A DNA stretch of 64,000 bases from Planctomycetales bacterium (lineage in GTDB: Bacteria; Planctomycetota; Planctomycetia; Pirellulales; Pirellulaceae), in contig JAGQOY010000013.1 of NCBI GenBank assembly GCA_020427005.1, positions 1-64,000 of the forward strand, written 5' to 3'. The translations under genes were made by a program, and so were the position numbers. The notes under the pieces are model-generated. The model saw only the letters and a list, made by a program, of their open reading frames with translations. It was not told the origin of the DNA and made no database searches. Of this stretch, positions 51,983 to 57,698 are shown piece by piece (positions within the stretch are counted from its first letter, which is position 1; each line of letters opens with the position of its first letter).

Positions 51983-53653
51983 CTACTCTTTTGGCATTGC
52001 ATGGTGTAAACCACGATTCATGGCGGCGACAAGGGCTCGCAAGGACGCCTTGATGATCGACTTGTGCTGACCAACACCAAACAATTCATTGCCATCGGGT
52101 GTTTTTACCAAGACATATGCGACGGCTGAACTATCACTACCAGCTTCCAATGCGTGCTCTTGATAATCCAAGATATCGTACGCCAAGCCATACTGTAGAG
52201 TCAGCGCATGTACAAATGCATCTAGTGGACCATTGCCCTGCCCTTCTATGACGCATGGCTGATTTTTATAAGTGACAGAAAACTCAAATCTTTCCTGATC
52301 ATCATCCGGGCAATCGATCGGCTTGTGAGACTTGTACGCCAATGTACACGGTGGGTCTACGTAAGTCGCGACGAATTTATCGCTAATTTCTTGTGGCGCG
52401 ATTTCTCGCCCAGTATTGTCCGTTATCTGCTGGATAATTTTGCTGAATGCAACCTGCAGGCGACGTGGCAGTCGGAACCCCAATTCCTCTTCAATAAGAA
52501 ACGCTACTCCCCCCTTGCCTGATTGAGAGTTGACGCGAATGACGGGGTCATATTGGCGACCAATATCGGCCGGATCAATTGTCAAGTACGGCACTTCGAA
52601 TCGCTCTTGGCCGCTAGCGCGCATGGCTTCAAAGCCCTTCTTAATTGCATCCTGATGTGAGCCTGAAAATGCAGTAAACACCAAATCGCCTGCATACGGC
52701 ATGCGTTCAGGTACCTTCAACTCGGTACAGAATTCCGCGATCCGGCGAATTTCTTTTAGATTAGAGAAGTCGAGTCCTGGGTCTATGCCCTGAGTCAGAT
52801 AGTTCAGAGCCATGGTAACGATATCGAGGTTCCCTGTCCGTTCTCCGTTACCGAATAACGTACCTTCGACTCGATCTGCCCCCGCCAGCATTCCTAGTTC
52901 CGACGAGGCTATACCCGTCCCACGATCATTATGAGTATGCAAGGAGATAATGGTTCGGTCGCGGTATCGAAAACGCCTACAAAATAATTCAATCTGATCC
53001 GCATACACATTGGGAGTCGCCAATTCGACCGTCGAAGGCAGATTGATGATTGCCCTATTGTCGCGCGTCGGTTGCCACTGTTCGCAAACTGCTTCACATA
53101 TTTCGACTGCATAGTCAATCTCAGTCCCTGTAAAGCTCTCAGGCGAGTATTGATATCGAACACTGCCAGCAGGAAAACTTCTCGCCAATCCGTGAATCAA
53201 CTGCGCTCCCTCGACTGCAATCTTAGTTATTTCGGCTTTATCAGCTCGGAATACTACGCGACGCTGCAATTCAGACGTCGAGTTATAAAGATGAACAATG
53301 CAACATTTGGCACCTCGAATCGCTTCAAACGTTCGTTCGATCAAATGCTCGCGAGCCTGAGTTAGAACCTGGATCGTCACGCCATCCGGTATATGTCCTC
53401 CCTCTATTAGCTCCCGGAGAAAGCTGTAATCTGTTTCAGATGCTGCTGGAAAACCGACCTCAATCTCTTTAAATCCAATCCGCAGCAACGTGCGAAACAT
53501 CTCCATTTTCTTGGCACCGCCCATTGGATTGATCAACGCTTGATTGCCATCGCGCAAATCAACCGAACACCATATCGGTGATCTATTCAGCCGAGCGTTT
53601 GGCCACTGTCGATCCGGCAGCTCGATGGGTGTGAAGGAGACGTATTTTGCCAC
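51983..53653 (-). CDS. leuA: 2-isopropylmalate synthase
   Basis: 556-residue alpha-isopropylmalate synthase of the longer (type 2) class: it condenses acetyl-CoA with 2-oxoisovalerate, the committed step of leucine synthesis. The TIM-barrel begins at IWCSVDLRDGNQAL, contains IEVGFPAASETDY and the metal site SLHTHNDRGTG, and the C-terminal regulatory domain carries the leucine feedback site. The GTG at 53653 (MAKYVSF) has AAGGA 8-9 bases upstream; the TTG 21 bases earlier lies inside the T-tract of the preceding hairpin. The upstream leader peptide and terminator suggest attenuation. It is convergent with yebC. Confidence 0.93.
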   Translation of the reverse strand: MAKYVSFTPIELPDRQWPNARLNRSPIWCSVDLRDGNQALINPMGGAKKMEMFRTLLRIGFKEIEVGFPAASETDYSFLRELIEGGHIPDGVTIQVLTQAREHLIERTFEAIRGAKCCIVHLYNSTSELQRRVVFRADKAEITKIAVEGAQLIHGLARSFPAGSVRYQYSPESFTGTEIDYAVEICEAVCEQWQPTRDNRAIINLPSTVELATPNVYADQIELFCRRFRYRDRTIISLHTHNDRGTGIASSELGMLAGADRVEGTLFGNGERTGNLDIVTMALNYLTQGIDPGLDFSNLKEIRRIAEFCTELKVPERMPYAGDLVFTAFSGSHQDAIKKGFEAMRASGQERFEVPYLTIDPADIGRQYDPVIRVNSQSGKGGVAFLIEEELGFRLPRRLQVAFSKIIQQITDNTGREIAPQEISDKFVATYVDPPCTLAYKSHKPIDCPDDDQERFEFSVTYKNQPCVIEGQGNGPLDAFVHALTLQYGLAYDILDYQEHALEAGSDSSAVAYVLVKTPDGNELFGVGQHKSIIKASLRALVAAMNRGLHHAMPKE

Positions 53654-53672
53654 TGAGTAGTTCCTTACGCAC

Positions 53673-53713
53673 AAAAAATAAAAAAACCCCGAAGCACTCT
53701 CGAGCCTCGGGGT
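53673..53713 (-). terminator. Leader terminator (attenuator) before leuA
   Basis: On the minus strand ACCCCGA (53713-53707) pairs with TCGGGGT (53692-53686), with three further pairs inside (GGC with GCT, one wobble) around an 8-base loop. A T-tract with a single A follows (53686-53673). It ends 20 bases before the leuA GTG, and the leader reading frame at 53745-53810 lies upstream. A G-run at 53741-53745 could pair with its CCCC arm as an antiterminator. It could alternatively be the end of transcription for the gene at 54047-54697. Confidence 0.75.
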
Positions 53714-53744
53714 CTATTTCATTTAAAACTATGGAATGTGCCCC

Positions 53745-53810
53745 CTAATGCTCGCACCTGGCGAGAGCAAGTCGAAGTAGGTTGAAATTGCTAAGGAGGT
53801 TTGTTCGCAT
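53745..53810 (-). CDS. leuL: Leucine-rich leader peptide of leuA
   Basis: A 21-codon frame with an ATG (53810) and TAG stop (53747-53745), too short for ordinary gene calling. Six codons encode leucine, at positions 5, 6, 11, 12, 14 and 16 (CTC, CTT, CTA, CTT, CTT, CTC). It is followed by GGGG next to the stop and then by the terminator hairpin, and the next gene is leuA. TATACT at 53836-53831 could be a -10 element, but no good -35 is seen. The ATG has no ribosome-binding site; an in-frame GTG three codons earlier is an alternative. The symbol leuL is by analogy only. Confidence 0.65.
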   Translation of the reverse strand: MRTNLLSNFNLLRLALARCEH

Positions 53811-54046
53811 GTCAATCACGAAAAATAGTTAGTATAAGAACTAGCAGATTACCCCGCCGCGGTGTCACCGTCAATAGTTACTGTCTCTGGGATACTCGAA
53901 TTCCAAAATGACCAAATGCCTGACTTCTCTACAAAGATCCGCTTGATTTATCGGCGCCGCGAGCAGTTTCCCTTACTTGTTTGAGGCGAGGTATACTACT
54001 TCACACTGATTGACACCTATCCCTGGCTACTCAAGGCAAATGTTGG
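53811..54046. other. Upstream region of the leuA leader
   Basis: About 240 bases between the leader peptide and the end of the FixJ-type gene. It carries the possible -10 element at 53831-53836 (minus strand TATACT). No further gene. Confidence 0.4.
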
Positions 54047-54697: not shown

Positions 54698-54846
54698 GTT
54701 GCACTCGATAATTGAATAATCCAGGTGAGGCTTGTACAAATCTCGCCTCCACAACCAATCGCGTCAGCGGCGAGCCATGTCCGCAGATTTTTTCAAAAGT
54801 TGTGGTGGATCGAATTTTCACGCTGCGTTTCACTGTCATTAGGCCC

Positions 54847-55404
54847 ATGGAAATGCCCGATTCAACTGAATTGAACAATTTGCAAAACCACGCCTCCAAG
54901 GAGTGGATGCAACGTCTCTATGATGACCTTCATCGACTGGCAGCCTCCTACCTCAGAAATGAAAGCAATACCGTTTCGTTGTCCCCAACTGTTCTCATAC
55001 ACGAAGCCTACTTGCGACTGCCATCGGCCGATAGCAAGGAATTTTCTCGCACTCACTTTTTTGCCATGGCTGCGACAAATATGCGCAGAGCTCTTGTGGA
55101 CCAGGCAAGGTATCGAAAGCGAAAAAAGCGCGGAGGCTCTTTGGGACGACAAGCCCTGGCAGACTGGGATGCCATTTCCCCCGCTTCCTGCGAACATGTT
55201 CTGGCTGTCGATGAGGCACTTACCGAACTTGGCAAGCTGGACAATCGGCAAGCACAAATAGTAGAAATGCGGTTTTTCGGTGGTATGACCGTGGCTGAAA
55301 TTGCGGAACACTTCTCGCTAAGCAAACGCACCATAGAAGCCGATTGGACGATGGCCAAAGCCTGGCTGCGCCGATGGTTCGATTCACAGGATGAACTTAG
55401 TTGA
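54847..55404 (+). CDS. ECF-type RNA polymerase sigma factor
   Basis: 185-residue sigma factor of the Sigma70_ECF group found in planctomycetes. Region 2 holds LYDDLHRLAASYLR, LIHEAYLRL and HFFAMAATNMRRALVDQARYRKRKKRGG. Region 4 has DNRQAQIVEMRFFGGMTVAEIAEHFSLSKRTIEADW, with the HTH at about 150-170. The ATG at 54847 is preferred, as the 45 upstream codons carry no domain. The stop overlaps the TTG start of the kinase gene by two bases, so they are translated together; a phosphorylated sigma or kinase-controlled partner is plausible. The gene is divergent from the FixJ-type regulator. Confidence 0.88.
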   Translation: MEMPDSTELNNLQNHASKEWMQRLYDDLHRLAASYLRNESNTVSLSPTVLIHEAYLRLPSADSKEFSRTHFFAMAATNMRRALVDQARYRKRKKRGGSLGRQALADWDAISPASCEHVLAVDEALTELGKLDNRQAQIVEMRFFGGMTVAEIAEHFSLSKRTIEADWTMAKAWLRRWFDSQDELS

Positions 55405-57698
55405 CGGAAGATTTGTATCAACTTGCCAAGTCCGAGTTCGTTCGGCTTGTCGACGCACCAGAAGCTCAGCGGGAAGTGCGACTGTCTGAGCTTAGCGCGC
55501 TCTCTCCCGAATTGGCAAATGAAGTCCGGTCGCTCTTAGAATATCACACTGCTAAGTCCCTGATTGTACCTTCGCACGAGCGCAAGATCCGCACACGCTC
55601 CACTTTGAGTACGACATTCCAGTCTCGCTCGTCCAGCTGGTTGCGAGAACCTCTAAAAGCCATACTTATCTCTGTGCCGTTCGTGCTGTTAGCGACTATT
55701 ATTATCGTGTGGGCCTTACAAGCAGTACATGGAGAGCTGGAACTTCGAATTGCCCAGCGTTTGTCGTCCGTAGTAAATCATCACCTTACCGAGTTCCGGC
55801 AGTGGGAAAAGATACAAATCGATCGTGCTCTGGCATGGAGCCAACATCCGAGCGTCCTGGAACCCATCCGAGAATTAGTAAAATCAATTCAAGATGCTCC
55901 GCACGACGAAACGGAATTGCGATATCAATTAATTGCCTCCAACCATAGTGAAAAAATTGCAGACGCCCTAAAGGACTTGGCCGGTAGCGACGTCTGCTTT
56001 CGGATCTGGGACCGCCGCTTGATGACCGTGGCGCACTCTGGAGCCTTGTCGCAAGCCATTGAGTTGGCGAATTTCGTTGCTCCTGAAGATGCTGCCTTAA
56101 TTGCACCTGTCATGAAGGGGACTCCTCGGCTTTTTACTCAGTTCAACGCACAACAGTTAGTCAAACTTTGTCGAAGCGGCGGTTTCACTTTCGCGATTGT
56201 TCCCATTCAGGATTCACGAGGCTCAATCGTAGCCGCTTTAATGCTATCAGACTCGGAAATGGACGATCAGTTTATTTCCTTGTTGTCCAACTGGGAAATG
56301 AACACCACCTGTGAAGTATATTTTCTCAGCTCACACGCCGAATTACTGACTGCCAGCCGCTATGAAGAACAGTTCGACAGTCTTGGAATCACTGAACCCA
56401 ACGTAGACGACTTCCACATAATGGTGCGTGACCCGGGTATCAATTTACTTACTGGGAAAGAGTCGGTTACCTCTCCCGACTCTTGGCCGCCCACTCTCCT
56501 GGCCCGTCAAGCGACCTCCGGAAGCGATGGAATCGATGTCGCTGGGTATCGAAATTACGTTGGACAACAAGTTGTTGGTGCTTGGCGCTGGCTTCCCGAC
56601 CACGAAGTTGCCCTCGCCTTTGAGGAGGATTATTCTAGTAGCTATGCGCTTGATACGGTTTTACGTAACGCTTTCGGTACCGTGGCCGTACTGTTTTCAG
56701 TCGGCTTGATAGGGCTTACCATTGCCACATCGGCCTCGAATTTCTCTGGTCGCAAATCCCTAGACGTTAATGAAGCCGGACCTTACAGAATTCAAGAACT
56801 GCTCGGCGAAGGAGGGATGGGACGCGTCTACCTAGCCGAACATGCTCTCTTATGCCGACAATCTGCCGTCAAAGTACTTACTCGCGATGGCCAGGATCTT
56901 AGCGTCATTACTCGATTTGAACGTGAAGTCCAATTGGCAAGCCAACTGACTCACCCTAATACGATCTCTATTTATGACTTCGGTCGAAATAAAGATGGGT
57001 TGTTCTATTACGCCATGGAATACATTCAAGGCGCCCACTTAGGCCAGTTAGTAGAATACGCCGGACCCGTTGTACCCGGACGTTGTATTTTCATATTGAA
57101 ACAGCTTTGCAGGGCGCTAAATGAAGCCCATCAAGCCGGCGTGGTGCACCGCGATATCAAGCCACAGAACGTCATGGTTTGCAATCGCGGAGGAGAGCCC
57201 GATTTTGTCAAACTGTTCGACTACGGTTTGGTAAAAGCATTTGCGCCCGGCGTTTCTCACACGGCCGCTCAAACTCGAGTGGTAGTTGGTACGCCGCGGT
57301 TTCTAGCACCTGAACGATTGAATTCCCCCTGGCTGGCAGATCCCCGAGTTGATGTATACTCCATTGGAGCATTAGCCTACTTCCTCCTTACCGCACAGTT
57401 GCCTCCTCTGGTTACTTTAGGTGAAAGCTTGCATGAACAGCCTGGTATCGAGACCCTTGACCTGCCACCATCCGTCATTGAATTTGGCGGCTTATTGAGC
57501 GTATGCCTAGCTGTGGAACCAGCCGCCAGGCCGTCAGGCATGCATTCACTTTTGCGGGAGCTTGAAAAACTCAGCTTGAAATTTAAGTGGACACGTGAAG
57601 ACTCAGTTGCATGGTGGACTCAACATGAGTCAAAACTTCTTCAGCTAGTAAAAAACAAGCAAGCCCAGTTGAGAGACTCCAGTCGTCCACATTTTTAG
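55401..57698 (+). CDS. Membrane Ser/Thr protein kinase with extracytoplasmic sensor
   Basis: 765-residue Hanks-type kinase with the catalytic domain C-terminal. Residues 1-80 are a cytoplasmic segment like those seen in sigma-linked kinases; a transmembrane helix lies at about 87-107 and a second at about 425-443, with an extracytoplasmic sensor of about 310 residues between, possibly cache-like. The kinase has LGEGGMGRV at 468-476, Lys491 (AVKVL), HRDIKPQN with His583 and Asp585, DYG at 607-609 in place of DFG, and GTPRFLAPE. TTG start overlapping the sigma stop. It probably relays an external signal to the sigma factor or another cytoplasmic target. Confidence 0.9.
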   Translation: MTEDLYQLAKSEFVRLVDAPEAQREVRLSELSALSPELANEVRSLLEYHTAKSLIVPSHERKIRTRSTLSTTFQSRSSSWLREPLKAILISVPFVLLATIIIVWALQAVHGELELRIAQRLSSVVNHHLTEFRQWEKIQIDRALAWSQHPSVLEPIRELVKSIQDAPHDETELRYQLIASNHSEKIADALKDLAGSDVCFRIWDRRLMTVAHSGALSQAIELANFVAPEDAALIAPVMKGTPRLFTQFNAQQLVKLCRSGGFTFAIVPIQDSRGSIVAALMLSDSEMDDQFISLLSNWEMNTTCEVYFLSSHAELLTASRYEEQFDSLGITEPNVDDFHIMVRDPGINLLTGKESVTSPDSWPPTLLARQATSGSDGIDVAGYRNYVGQQVVGAWRWLPDHEVALAFEEDYSSSYALDTVLRNAFGTVAVLFSVGLIGLTIATSASNFSGRKSLDVNEAGPYRIQELLGEGGMGRVYLAEHALLCRQSAVKVLTRDGQDLSVITRFEREVQLASQLTHPNTISIYDFGRNKDGLFYYAMEYIQGAHLGQLVEYAGPVVPGRCIFILKQLCRALNEAHQAGVVHRDIKPQNVMVCNRGGEPDFVKLFDYGLVKAFAPGVSHTAAQTRVVVGTPRFLAPERLNSPWLADPRVDVYSIGALAYFLLTAQLPPLVTLGESLHEQPGIETLDLPPSVIEFGGLLSVCLAVEPAARPSGMHSLLRELEKLSLKFKWTREDSVAWWTQHESKLLQLVKNKQAQLRDSSRPHF

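What the first reader, a model, noticed from the sequence alone, without database searches (positions are those of the whole stretch)
53654..53836. Leucine-rich leader peptide and terminator ahead of leuA: candidate attenuator
Read on the minus strand, a 21-codon frame with six leucine codons (53810-53745) is followed by GGGGG at the stop codon (53745-53741), then a hairpin with a T-tract (53713-53673), then the leuA GTG (53653). The G-run can pair with the CCCC arm of the terminator, an antiterminator that a ribosome reaching the stop would cover. These are the parts of a classical leucine attenuator. The leader also contains CTCCTTA, complementary to the leuA TAAGGA ribosome-binding site, so a second, translational layer is possible. 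Described leu attenuators are mostly from proteobacteria and actinobacteria; I do not know of a planctomycete one.
Basis: partly seen in the sequence, partly recalled or inferred. Interest (0 to 1): 0.8.

Follow-up and report, generated by a model that had tools for sequence, protein, structure and literature searches.

The report
Leucine-sensing attenuator of planctomycete leuA
The DNA just before a leucine-synthesis gene of this planctomycete encodes a tiny leucine-rich peptide and an RNA stop-switch, a probable leucine-starvation sensor that is shared by most of its bacterial class, was kept when the enzyme behind it was swapped for a distant version, and has an isoleucine edition upstream of a sister gene.

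Summary
Confirmed and extended. Window 53874-53653 (- strand) holds a promoter-like site, a 21-codon leader with six Leu codons, TAG fused to GGGGG, a Rho-independent terminator, then leuA. All 12 same-type leuA genes with enough upstream DNA (this one included) have the same parts; so do 69 of 82 ordinary (LeuA1, ~30% identical) leuA genes across class Planctomycetia, against 8 of 597 control stretches. The antiterminator covaries (z -8.7; thinned z -5.4; negative control p 0.52). In folding models a ribosome stalled at a Leu codon lets the terminator arm be captured (mean P 0.90); one at the stop codon does not (0.11). The citramalate synthase paralogue (isoleucine pathway) has an Ile-rich leader plus terminator in 15 of 21 loci, including this genome; ilvB and trpE do not. 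In this genus LeuA2 sits in the locus of LeuA1: the enzyme was displaced, the attenuator kept. Best reading: a classical ribosome-mediated leucine attenuator, class-wide, absent from Rfam and not found in the literature searched. It implies coupled transcription and translation in planctomycetes, a disputed point. No expression data were available.

The parts
53846..53874 (-). promoter-like site TTGACG (53874-53869), 17-nt spacer, TAATCT (53851-53846)
   Evidence: 8 of 12 consensus matches; equivalent site in 11 of 11 loci with upstream DNA; start site inferred near 53839
53745..53810 (-). leader peptide ORF MRTNLLSNFNLLRLALARCEH*, Leu codons at 53798-53793, 53780-53775, 53771-53769, 53765-53763
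   Evidence: Leu-rich leaders in 12/12 LeuA2 and 69/82 LeuA1 loci
53750..53768 (-). possible 1:2 (pause/protector) hairpin GCTCTCGC..GTGCGAGC over the last Leu/Ala codons
   Evidence: MFE fold; modest support only across relatives (42 of 58 above their shuffles)
53741..53754 (-). antiterminator 5' arm (arm 2): CGAGC-ATTA-GGGGG, spanning the stop codon
   Evidence: pairs with arm 3; covariation in 58 loci
53701..53712 (-). arm 3: CCCCGAGGCTCG, shared by antiterminator and terminator
53684..53715 (-). Rho-independent terminator hairpin
   Evidence: equivalent in all LeuA2 relatives
53673..53689 (-). T-tract of the terminator
51983..53653 (-). leuA, 2-isopropylmalate synthase of the long (leuA_yeast) type, GTG start
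   Evidence: NCBIfam TIGR00970 733 bits, cut-off 697

Best explanation
It is a classical ribosome-mediated transcription attenuator that senses leucine. RNA polymerase starts about 30 nt before the leader ORF and a ribosome follows it. With enough charged tRNA-Leu the ribosome reaches the TAG, where its footprint covers arm 2 (CGAGC..GGGGG); arm 3 then pairs with arm 4, the terminator forms and transcription stops before leuA. With too little charged tRNA-Leu the ribosome stalls in the Leu codons, arm 2 is free, captures arm 3 first, and polymerase reads through into leuA. Shown here: the parts, their conservation, the covariation, the codon specificity (Leu at leuA, Ile at the citramalate synthase gene). 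Inferred: transcription start, translation of the leader, stalling, termination and the leucine response.
For: 12/12 same-type loci with enough upstream DNA and 69/82 LeuA1 genes of the class have leader plus terminator, against 8/597 control stretches of planctomycete DNA. Leu is 37% of leader residues. Own-arm pairing of the outer antiterminator helix -9.74 against -7.05 kcal/mol for swapped arms, z -8.7; LeuA2-only p 0.006; thinned set z -5.4; negative control p 0.52. Ribosome-position folding: arm 3 captured 0.90 at the best Leu stall, 0.11 at the stop (window leader 1.00 and 0.02). Conserved promoter-like site upstream of the leader. Codon specificity: the citramalate synthase paralogue has Ile-rich leaders in 15/21 loci, Leu-rich in 1/21; leuA set Ile-rich in 3/81; controls 1/597. 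ilvB and trpE of the same lineages have no leader of their own amino acid with a terminator.
Against: No RNA-seq, no reporter, no leucine response. At equilibrium the terminator usually wins once arm 4 exists, so read-through must be kinetic. A strong 1:2 protector hairpin is not general (mean P of arm-3 capture without any ribosome 0.59). A pair count in a rigid frame showed only about 2.5 sd excess because linker lengths vary. The leader ORF lacks a clear Shine-Dalgarno. 13 of 82 LeuA1 loci gave no candidate.
Confidence: 0.9

Rival explanations
1. The hairpin is only the terminator of the upstream response-regulator-like gene (54754-54047, same strand) and the Leu-rich ORF is chance.
For: A same-strand ORF ends about 240 nt before the leader; T-tract hairpins are common (27 found on both window strands).
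Against: Leader and terminator go with leuA, not with the upstream gene, in dozens of genera; Leu-rich leader with terminator in 8 of 597 control stretches only; covariation of arm 2 with arm 3.
Confidence: 0.02
2. Leucine control is translational: the leader sequesters the leuA ribosome-binding site, as proposed for the actinobacterial LEU element.
For: CTCCTTA and TAAGGA are complementary here and pair in the MFE fold; the closest enzymes outside planctomycetes are mostly actinobacterial and have short Leu-run ORFs.
Against: TAAGGA is absent from the 11 other LeuA2 loci; the distance to leuA varies from 91 to 363 nt; a terminator is always present, whereas 75 of 78 non-planctomycete LeuA2 genes lack one.
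Confidence: 0.03
3. Nascent-peptide arrest: the leader peptide itself, not charged-tRNA supply, stalls the ribosome in response to a ligand.
For: Several leaders share NLL and LAL..E motifs within the genus.
Against: Apart from Leu no residue is conserved across the set; the Ile version at the citramalate synthase gene follows the pathway's amino acid.
Confidence: 0.04

Closest known systems
Enterobacterial leu operon attenuator (leuL; Rfam RF00512 Leu_leader)
   Same: Leu-codon-rich leader peptide, alternative antiterminator and terminator, stop codon over arm 2, upstream of leuA
   Different: No Rfam match even at E 5; different sequence; leuA alone rather than leuABCD; no strong general 1:2 hairpin. 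Details of leuL are from my own knowledge.
Actinobacterial LEU element (PMC1262725)
   Same: Leu-run ORF upstream of leuA; nearest non-planctomycete relatives of this enzyme are mostly from these bacteria
   Different: LEU element pairs Leu codons with the Shine-Dalgarno, has a proposed pseudoknot and no terminator; here a terminator and an antiterminator
Staphylococcus aureus ilv-leu attenuator (PMC5794164)
   Same: Ile/Leu codon leader, terminator about 50 nt downstream, proposed ribosome stalling
   Different: Other phylum; operon starts with ilvD; its proposed antiterminator pairs with the poly-U, here with the terminator 5' arm
Streptomyces leuS and trp attenuators (PMC1262725)
   Same: Classical leader-antiterminator-terminator plan
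   Different: Other genes and other phylum

Membership tests
Ribosome-mediated transcription attenuator (filed as) | Short leader ORF rich in codons of the pathway's amino acid | tested here: met
   Ile at the citramalate synthase gene
Ribosome-mediated transcription attenuator (filed as) | Rho-independent terminator between leader and gene | tested here: met
Ribosome-mediated transcription attenuator (filed as) | Antiterminator mutually exclusive with the terminator, conserved by covariation | tested here: met
   (z -8.7, control p 0.52)
Ribosome-mediated transcription attenuator (filed as) | Ribosome at stop masks arm 2, ribosome at a regulatory codon frees it | tested here: met
   geometry and partition functions, (model only)
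Ribosome-mediated transcription attenuator (filed as) | 1:2 protector/pause hairpin | tested here: inconclusive
   present in the window fold, weak across relatives
Ribosome-mediated transcription attenuator (filed as) | Transcription starts upstream of the leader | tested here: inconclusive
   conserved promoter-like site only, no 5'-end data
Ribosome-mediated transcription attenuator (filed as) | Read-through rises when tRNA-Leu charging falls | not testable with these tools
   needs experiment
Rfam RF00512 Leu_leader | Match to the covariance model | tested here: not met
Actinobacterial LEU element | Leu codons pair with leuA Shine-Dalgarno, no terminator | tested here: not met
T-box | Match to the T-box model | tested here: not met
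   no Rfam match in the window or in 13 LeuA1 loci

The most novel reading that the evidence does not exclude
Class Planctomycetia has its own ancestral branched-chain attenuator family at two homologous first-step enzymes, Leu-coded at leuA and Ile-coded at the citramalate synthase gene. At leuA it outlived the replacement of the enzyme in the same locus by a ~30% identical one. Because it works only if ribosomes follow RNA polymerase, it implies coupled transcription and translation in planctomycetes, against the spatial separation claimed for Gemmata.
Probability: 0.7. Interest if true: 0.75.

Novelty: new member of a known kind. Interest (0 to 1): 0.63.

Why it matters
Leader-peptide attenuators were long documented mainly in Proteobacteria and Actinobacteria (PMC2965389 says so in 2010), then in Firmicutes. 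A class-wide one in planctomycetes widens the range. It is also a genetic readout for a disputed question: Gemmata obscuriglobus has been reported to separate transcription from translation (discussed in PMC6212462 and PMC5394234), yet this switch cannot work unless a ribosome translates the leader while polymerase is still near the terminator. Finally, it is a clear case in which a regulatory RNA stayed at its locus while the enzyme under it was exchanged.

Tried and rejected
Translational second layer (CTCCTTA x TAAGGA): not conserved. Arrival of the attenuator together with LeuA2 from actinobacteria: their upstream regions lack terminators in 75 of 78 loci, and LeuA2 homologues at 51-53% in other planctomycetes (L033, L034; L008 holds only 236 nt) show no obvious leader with terminator. 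Rigid-frame pair counting: too crude, linkers vary in length, replaced by the arm-swap test. Arm 1:arm 2 covariation: not significant in the LeuA2 set (p 0.33). General attenuation in planctomycete amino-acid genes: no fitting leader with terminator before ilvB (0 of 13) or trpE (0 of 13). Spread beyond the class: only 3 of 20 loci, in two family-level groups of the same phylum.

Full report
What is there. On the minus strand the order is TTGACG-N17-TAATCT (53874-53846), a 21-codon ORF MRTNLLSNFNLLRLALARCEH* (53810-53745) with six Leu codons, TAG running into GGGGG (53745-53741), a terminator hairpin 53715-53684 with a T-tract, and leuA from GTG 53653. The same composite turns up nowhere else in the window, and the string TAGGG..ACCC..GGGTTTTT occurs once in the 7.87-Mb genome. 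Rfam has no match at gathering scores in the window, and only sub-threshold matches in the leader at E up to 5; RF00512 Leu_leader is not among them.

Same gene in relatives. The leuA of the window is the long type (TIGR00970 leuA_yeast, 733 bits; called LeuA2 below). Thirteen genomes of the family, this one included, carry it at 72% identity or more. In 12 the upstream DNA is long enough to look, and all 12 have a Leu-rich leader, a G-run at or just after the stop, and a terminator; the thirteenth, whose contig starts 106 nt before the gene, shows the terminator. The leaders differ almost everywhere except in Leu, use three different stop codons, and end 91 to 363 nt before leuA. In the one with 363 nt (L005) an extra stretch of about 300 nt lies between terminator and gene. 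A promoter-like TTGAC site with a TAnnnT box at 17-18 nt precedes the leader in 11 of 11 with that DNA; in two (L032, L036) the box lies 6-7 nt before the leader ATG, so that leader is probably read from a leaderless transcript.

Other leuA genes. Most planctomycetes have instead the usual bacterial LeuA (LeuA1, TIGR00973, about 30% identical to LeuA2; 233 of 249 class genomes). I took the DNA upstream of 82 of these genes. A script asking for a Leu-rich ORF ending 10-95 nt before a terminator finds one in 69 of 82, against 8 of 597 stretches of planctomycete DNA of the same size away from leuA. Leu makes up 37% of the leader residues, the next amino acid 8.5%; 56 of 81 stops are TAG and 38 of 81 read TAGGG. 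A further 20 loci of family-level group f21 gave 9 by script and 6 more visible by eye as Leu-rich frames ending TTAGGGTTCG with a terminator-like hairpin (my count). Outside the class only 3 of 20 loci have it. So it is an attenuator of class Planctomycetia and close kin, not a private feature of this genome.

Antiterminator. Arm 2 lies around the stop codon (here CGAGC-ATTA-GGGGG) and pairs with the 5' arm of the terminator (CCCC-GAG-GCTCG). To test it without using the invariant G and C runs, I paired the 13 nt before the G-run with the 13 nt after the C-run, own against swapped partners, in 58 loci: -9.74 against -7.05 kcal/mol, z -8.7, none of 20,000 permutations as good; LeuA1 alone z -6.9, LeuA2 alone p 0.006; after thinning to arms under 55% identical, z -5.4 with 33 loci; a control stretch further up the leader gave p 0.52. 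Part of this may reflect relatedness, but the thinned set and the control argue against that being all. A rigid ungapped count gave only a small excess, because the linker between the two helix halves varies.

Ribosome positions. I let the ribosome hide everything up to 12 nt past the first base of the A-site codon and computed the chance that arm 3 is already captured by upstream RNA before arm 4 exists. Averaged over 81 leaders: 0.90 at the best Leu codon, 0.11 with the stop codon in the A site, 0.59 with no ribosome; for the window leader 1.00, 0.02 and 0.99. This is the logic of a classical attenuator. The no-ribosome value says that many of these RNAs lack a strong protector hairpin, so an untranslated leader should tend to read through. 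These are equilibrium folds of partial transcripts, a model, not a measurement.

Codon specificity. In one genome a second TAGGG-terminator unit lies upstream of the citramalate synthase paralogue (best NCBIfam match TIGR00977 on its first 200 residues; isoleucine pathway), and its leader is Ile-rich: MTQVRQITDRPTAIRGRIIIGNPRRS*. Of 21 such loci 15 have an Ile-rich leader plus terminator and one a Leu-rich one; the reverse holds at leuA (3 of 81 Ile-rich); controls 1 of 597. The window's own genome has MRPITTCIAIIPIFEIAIIGHLYGGATLG* there (L228). ilvB and trpE in the same lineages have no leader of their own amino acid with a terminator (one Trp-containing frame near a terminator-like stem appeared before an ilvB). 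That the codons follow the pathway is the strongest argument that translation of the leader, and not only the RNA, matters.

Enzyme displacement. In the window and in G009 LeuA2 lies between the yebC-side block (clusters c0-c4) and cluster c9; in G007, of the same genus, LeuA1 lies at exactly that place in the mirror-image contig. None of the 13 genomes with this LeuA2 has a LeuA1 (best match 28-32% identity). Since LeuA1 is near universal in the class, LeuA2 most likely replaced it in situ in this genus while attenuator and neighbours stayed. The leaders agree: LeuA1 in G007 ends LALGER*, GGCGAGCGTTAGGGGTTCG; LeuA2 in G009 ends LALADCER*, TGCGAGCGGTAGGGGTTCG. In other genera the LeuA2 gene sits elsewhere, still with an attenuator; whether it moved there with its attenuator is not settled. 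Non-planctomycete relatives of LeuA2, mostly actinobacterial, have short Leu-run ORFs but terminators in 3 of 78, matching the LEU element of PMC1262725.

What it is and is not. It meets the testable parts of the definition of a ribosome-mediated transcription attenuator. It is not a member of Rfam Leu_leader, not a LEU element and not a T-box.

Novelty and limits. I found no paper on a planctomycete leu attenuator in the library searched; PMC2965389 stated in 2010 that leader-peptide systems were known only from Proteobacteria and Actinobacteria before its own Firmicutes case. A 2010 comparative survey cited in PMC4833913 was not read, so priority is open. The bearing on transcription-translation coupling is an inference from the mechanism, set against the reports discussed in PMC6212462 and PMC5394234.

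Noticed in passing
L010 (about -147 from the LeuA1 match), L012, L017, L025, L028, L139, L141 and others, between attenuator and LeuA1 start: A second conserved element, AGGGCRYGRTTGGYRTTGC followed by a GGCCGACC-loop-GGTCGGCC hairpin, upstream of leuA in Pirellulales outside this family. Exact copies occur once per genome and at leuA in 6 of 12 genomes; no Rfam match; the hairpin has two pairs with changes on both sides. Function unknown.
   Followed up: partly
L228 (G000:C506:28619-29279, - strand), L225, L232-L247: Ile-rich leader plus terminator upstream of the citramalate synthase paralogue, in this genome and 14 other loci.
   Followed up: yes
L024 3911-3996, L025 3245-3329, L026 3767-3853: A tRNA gene, by its anticodon loop probably tRNA-Leu(UAA), lies downstream of LeuA1 in three genomes of different families.
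   Followed up: no
L005 (G011), about -290 to -20 relative to leuA: About 300 nt with inverted-repeat character between terminator and leuA; looks like an inserted dispersed repeat. Antiterminator pairing is also weak in this locus.
   Followed up: no
L085, L094, L107 (Acidimicrobiia): Three actinobacterial-side leuA genes have a leader ending HTHLLLL plus a terminator about 80 nt before the gene, unlike the other LEU-element loci.
   Followed up: no
window 54712-57698: An ORF that reads like an ECF-type sigma factor overlaps the start of an ORF that reads like a Ser/Thr kinase, opposite to a response-regulator-like ORF (54754-54047); this block lies between leuA and the conserved neighbour c9 in the window and G001 but not in G009 or G007. 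Functions read by eye only.
   Followed up: no
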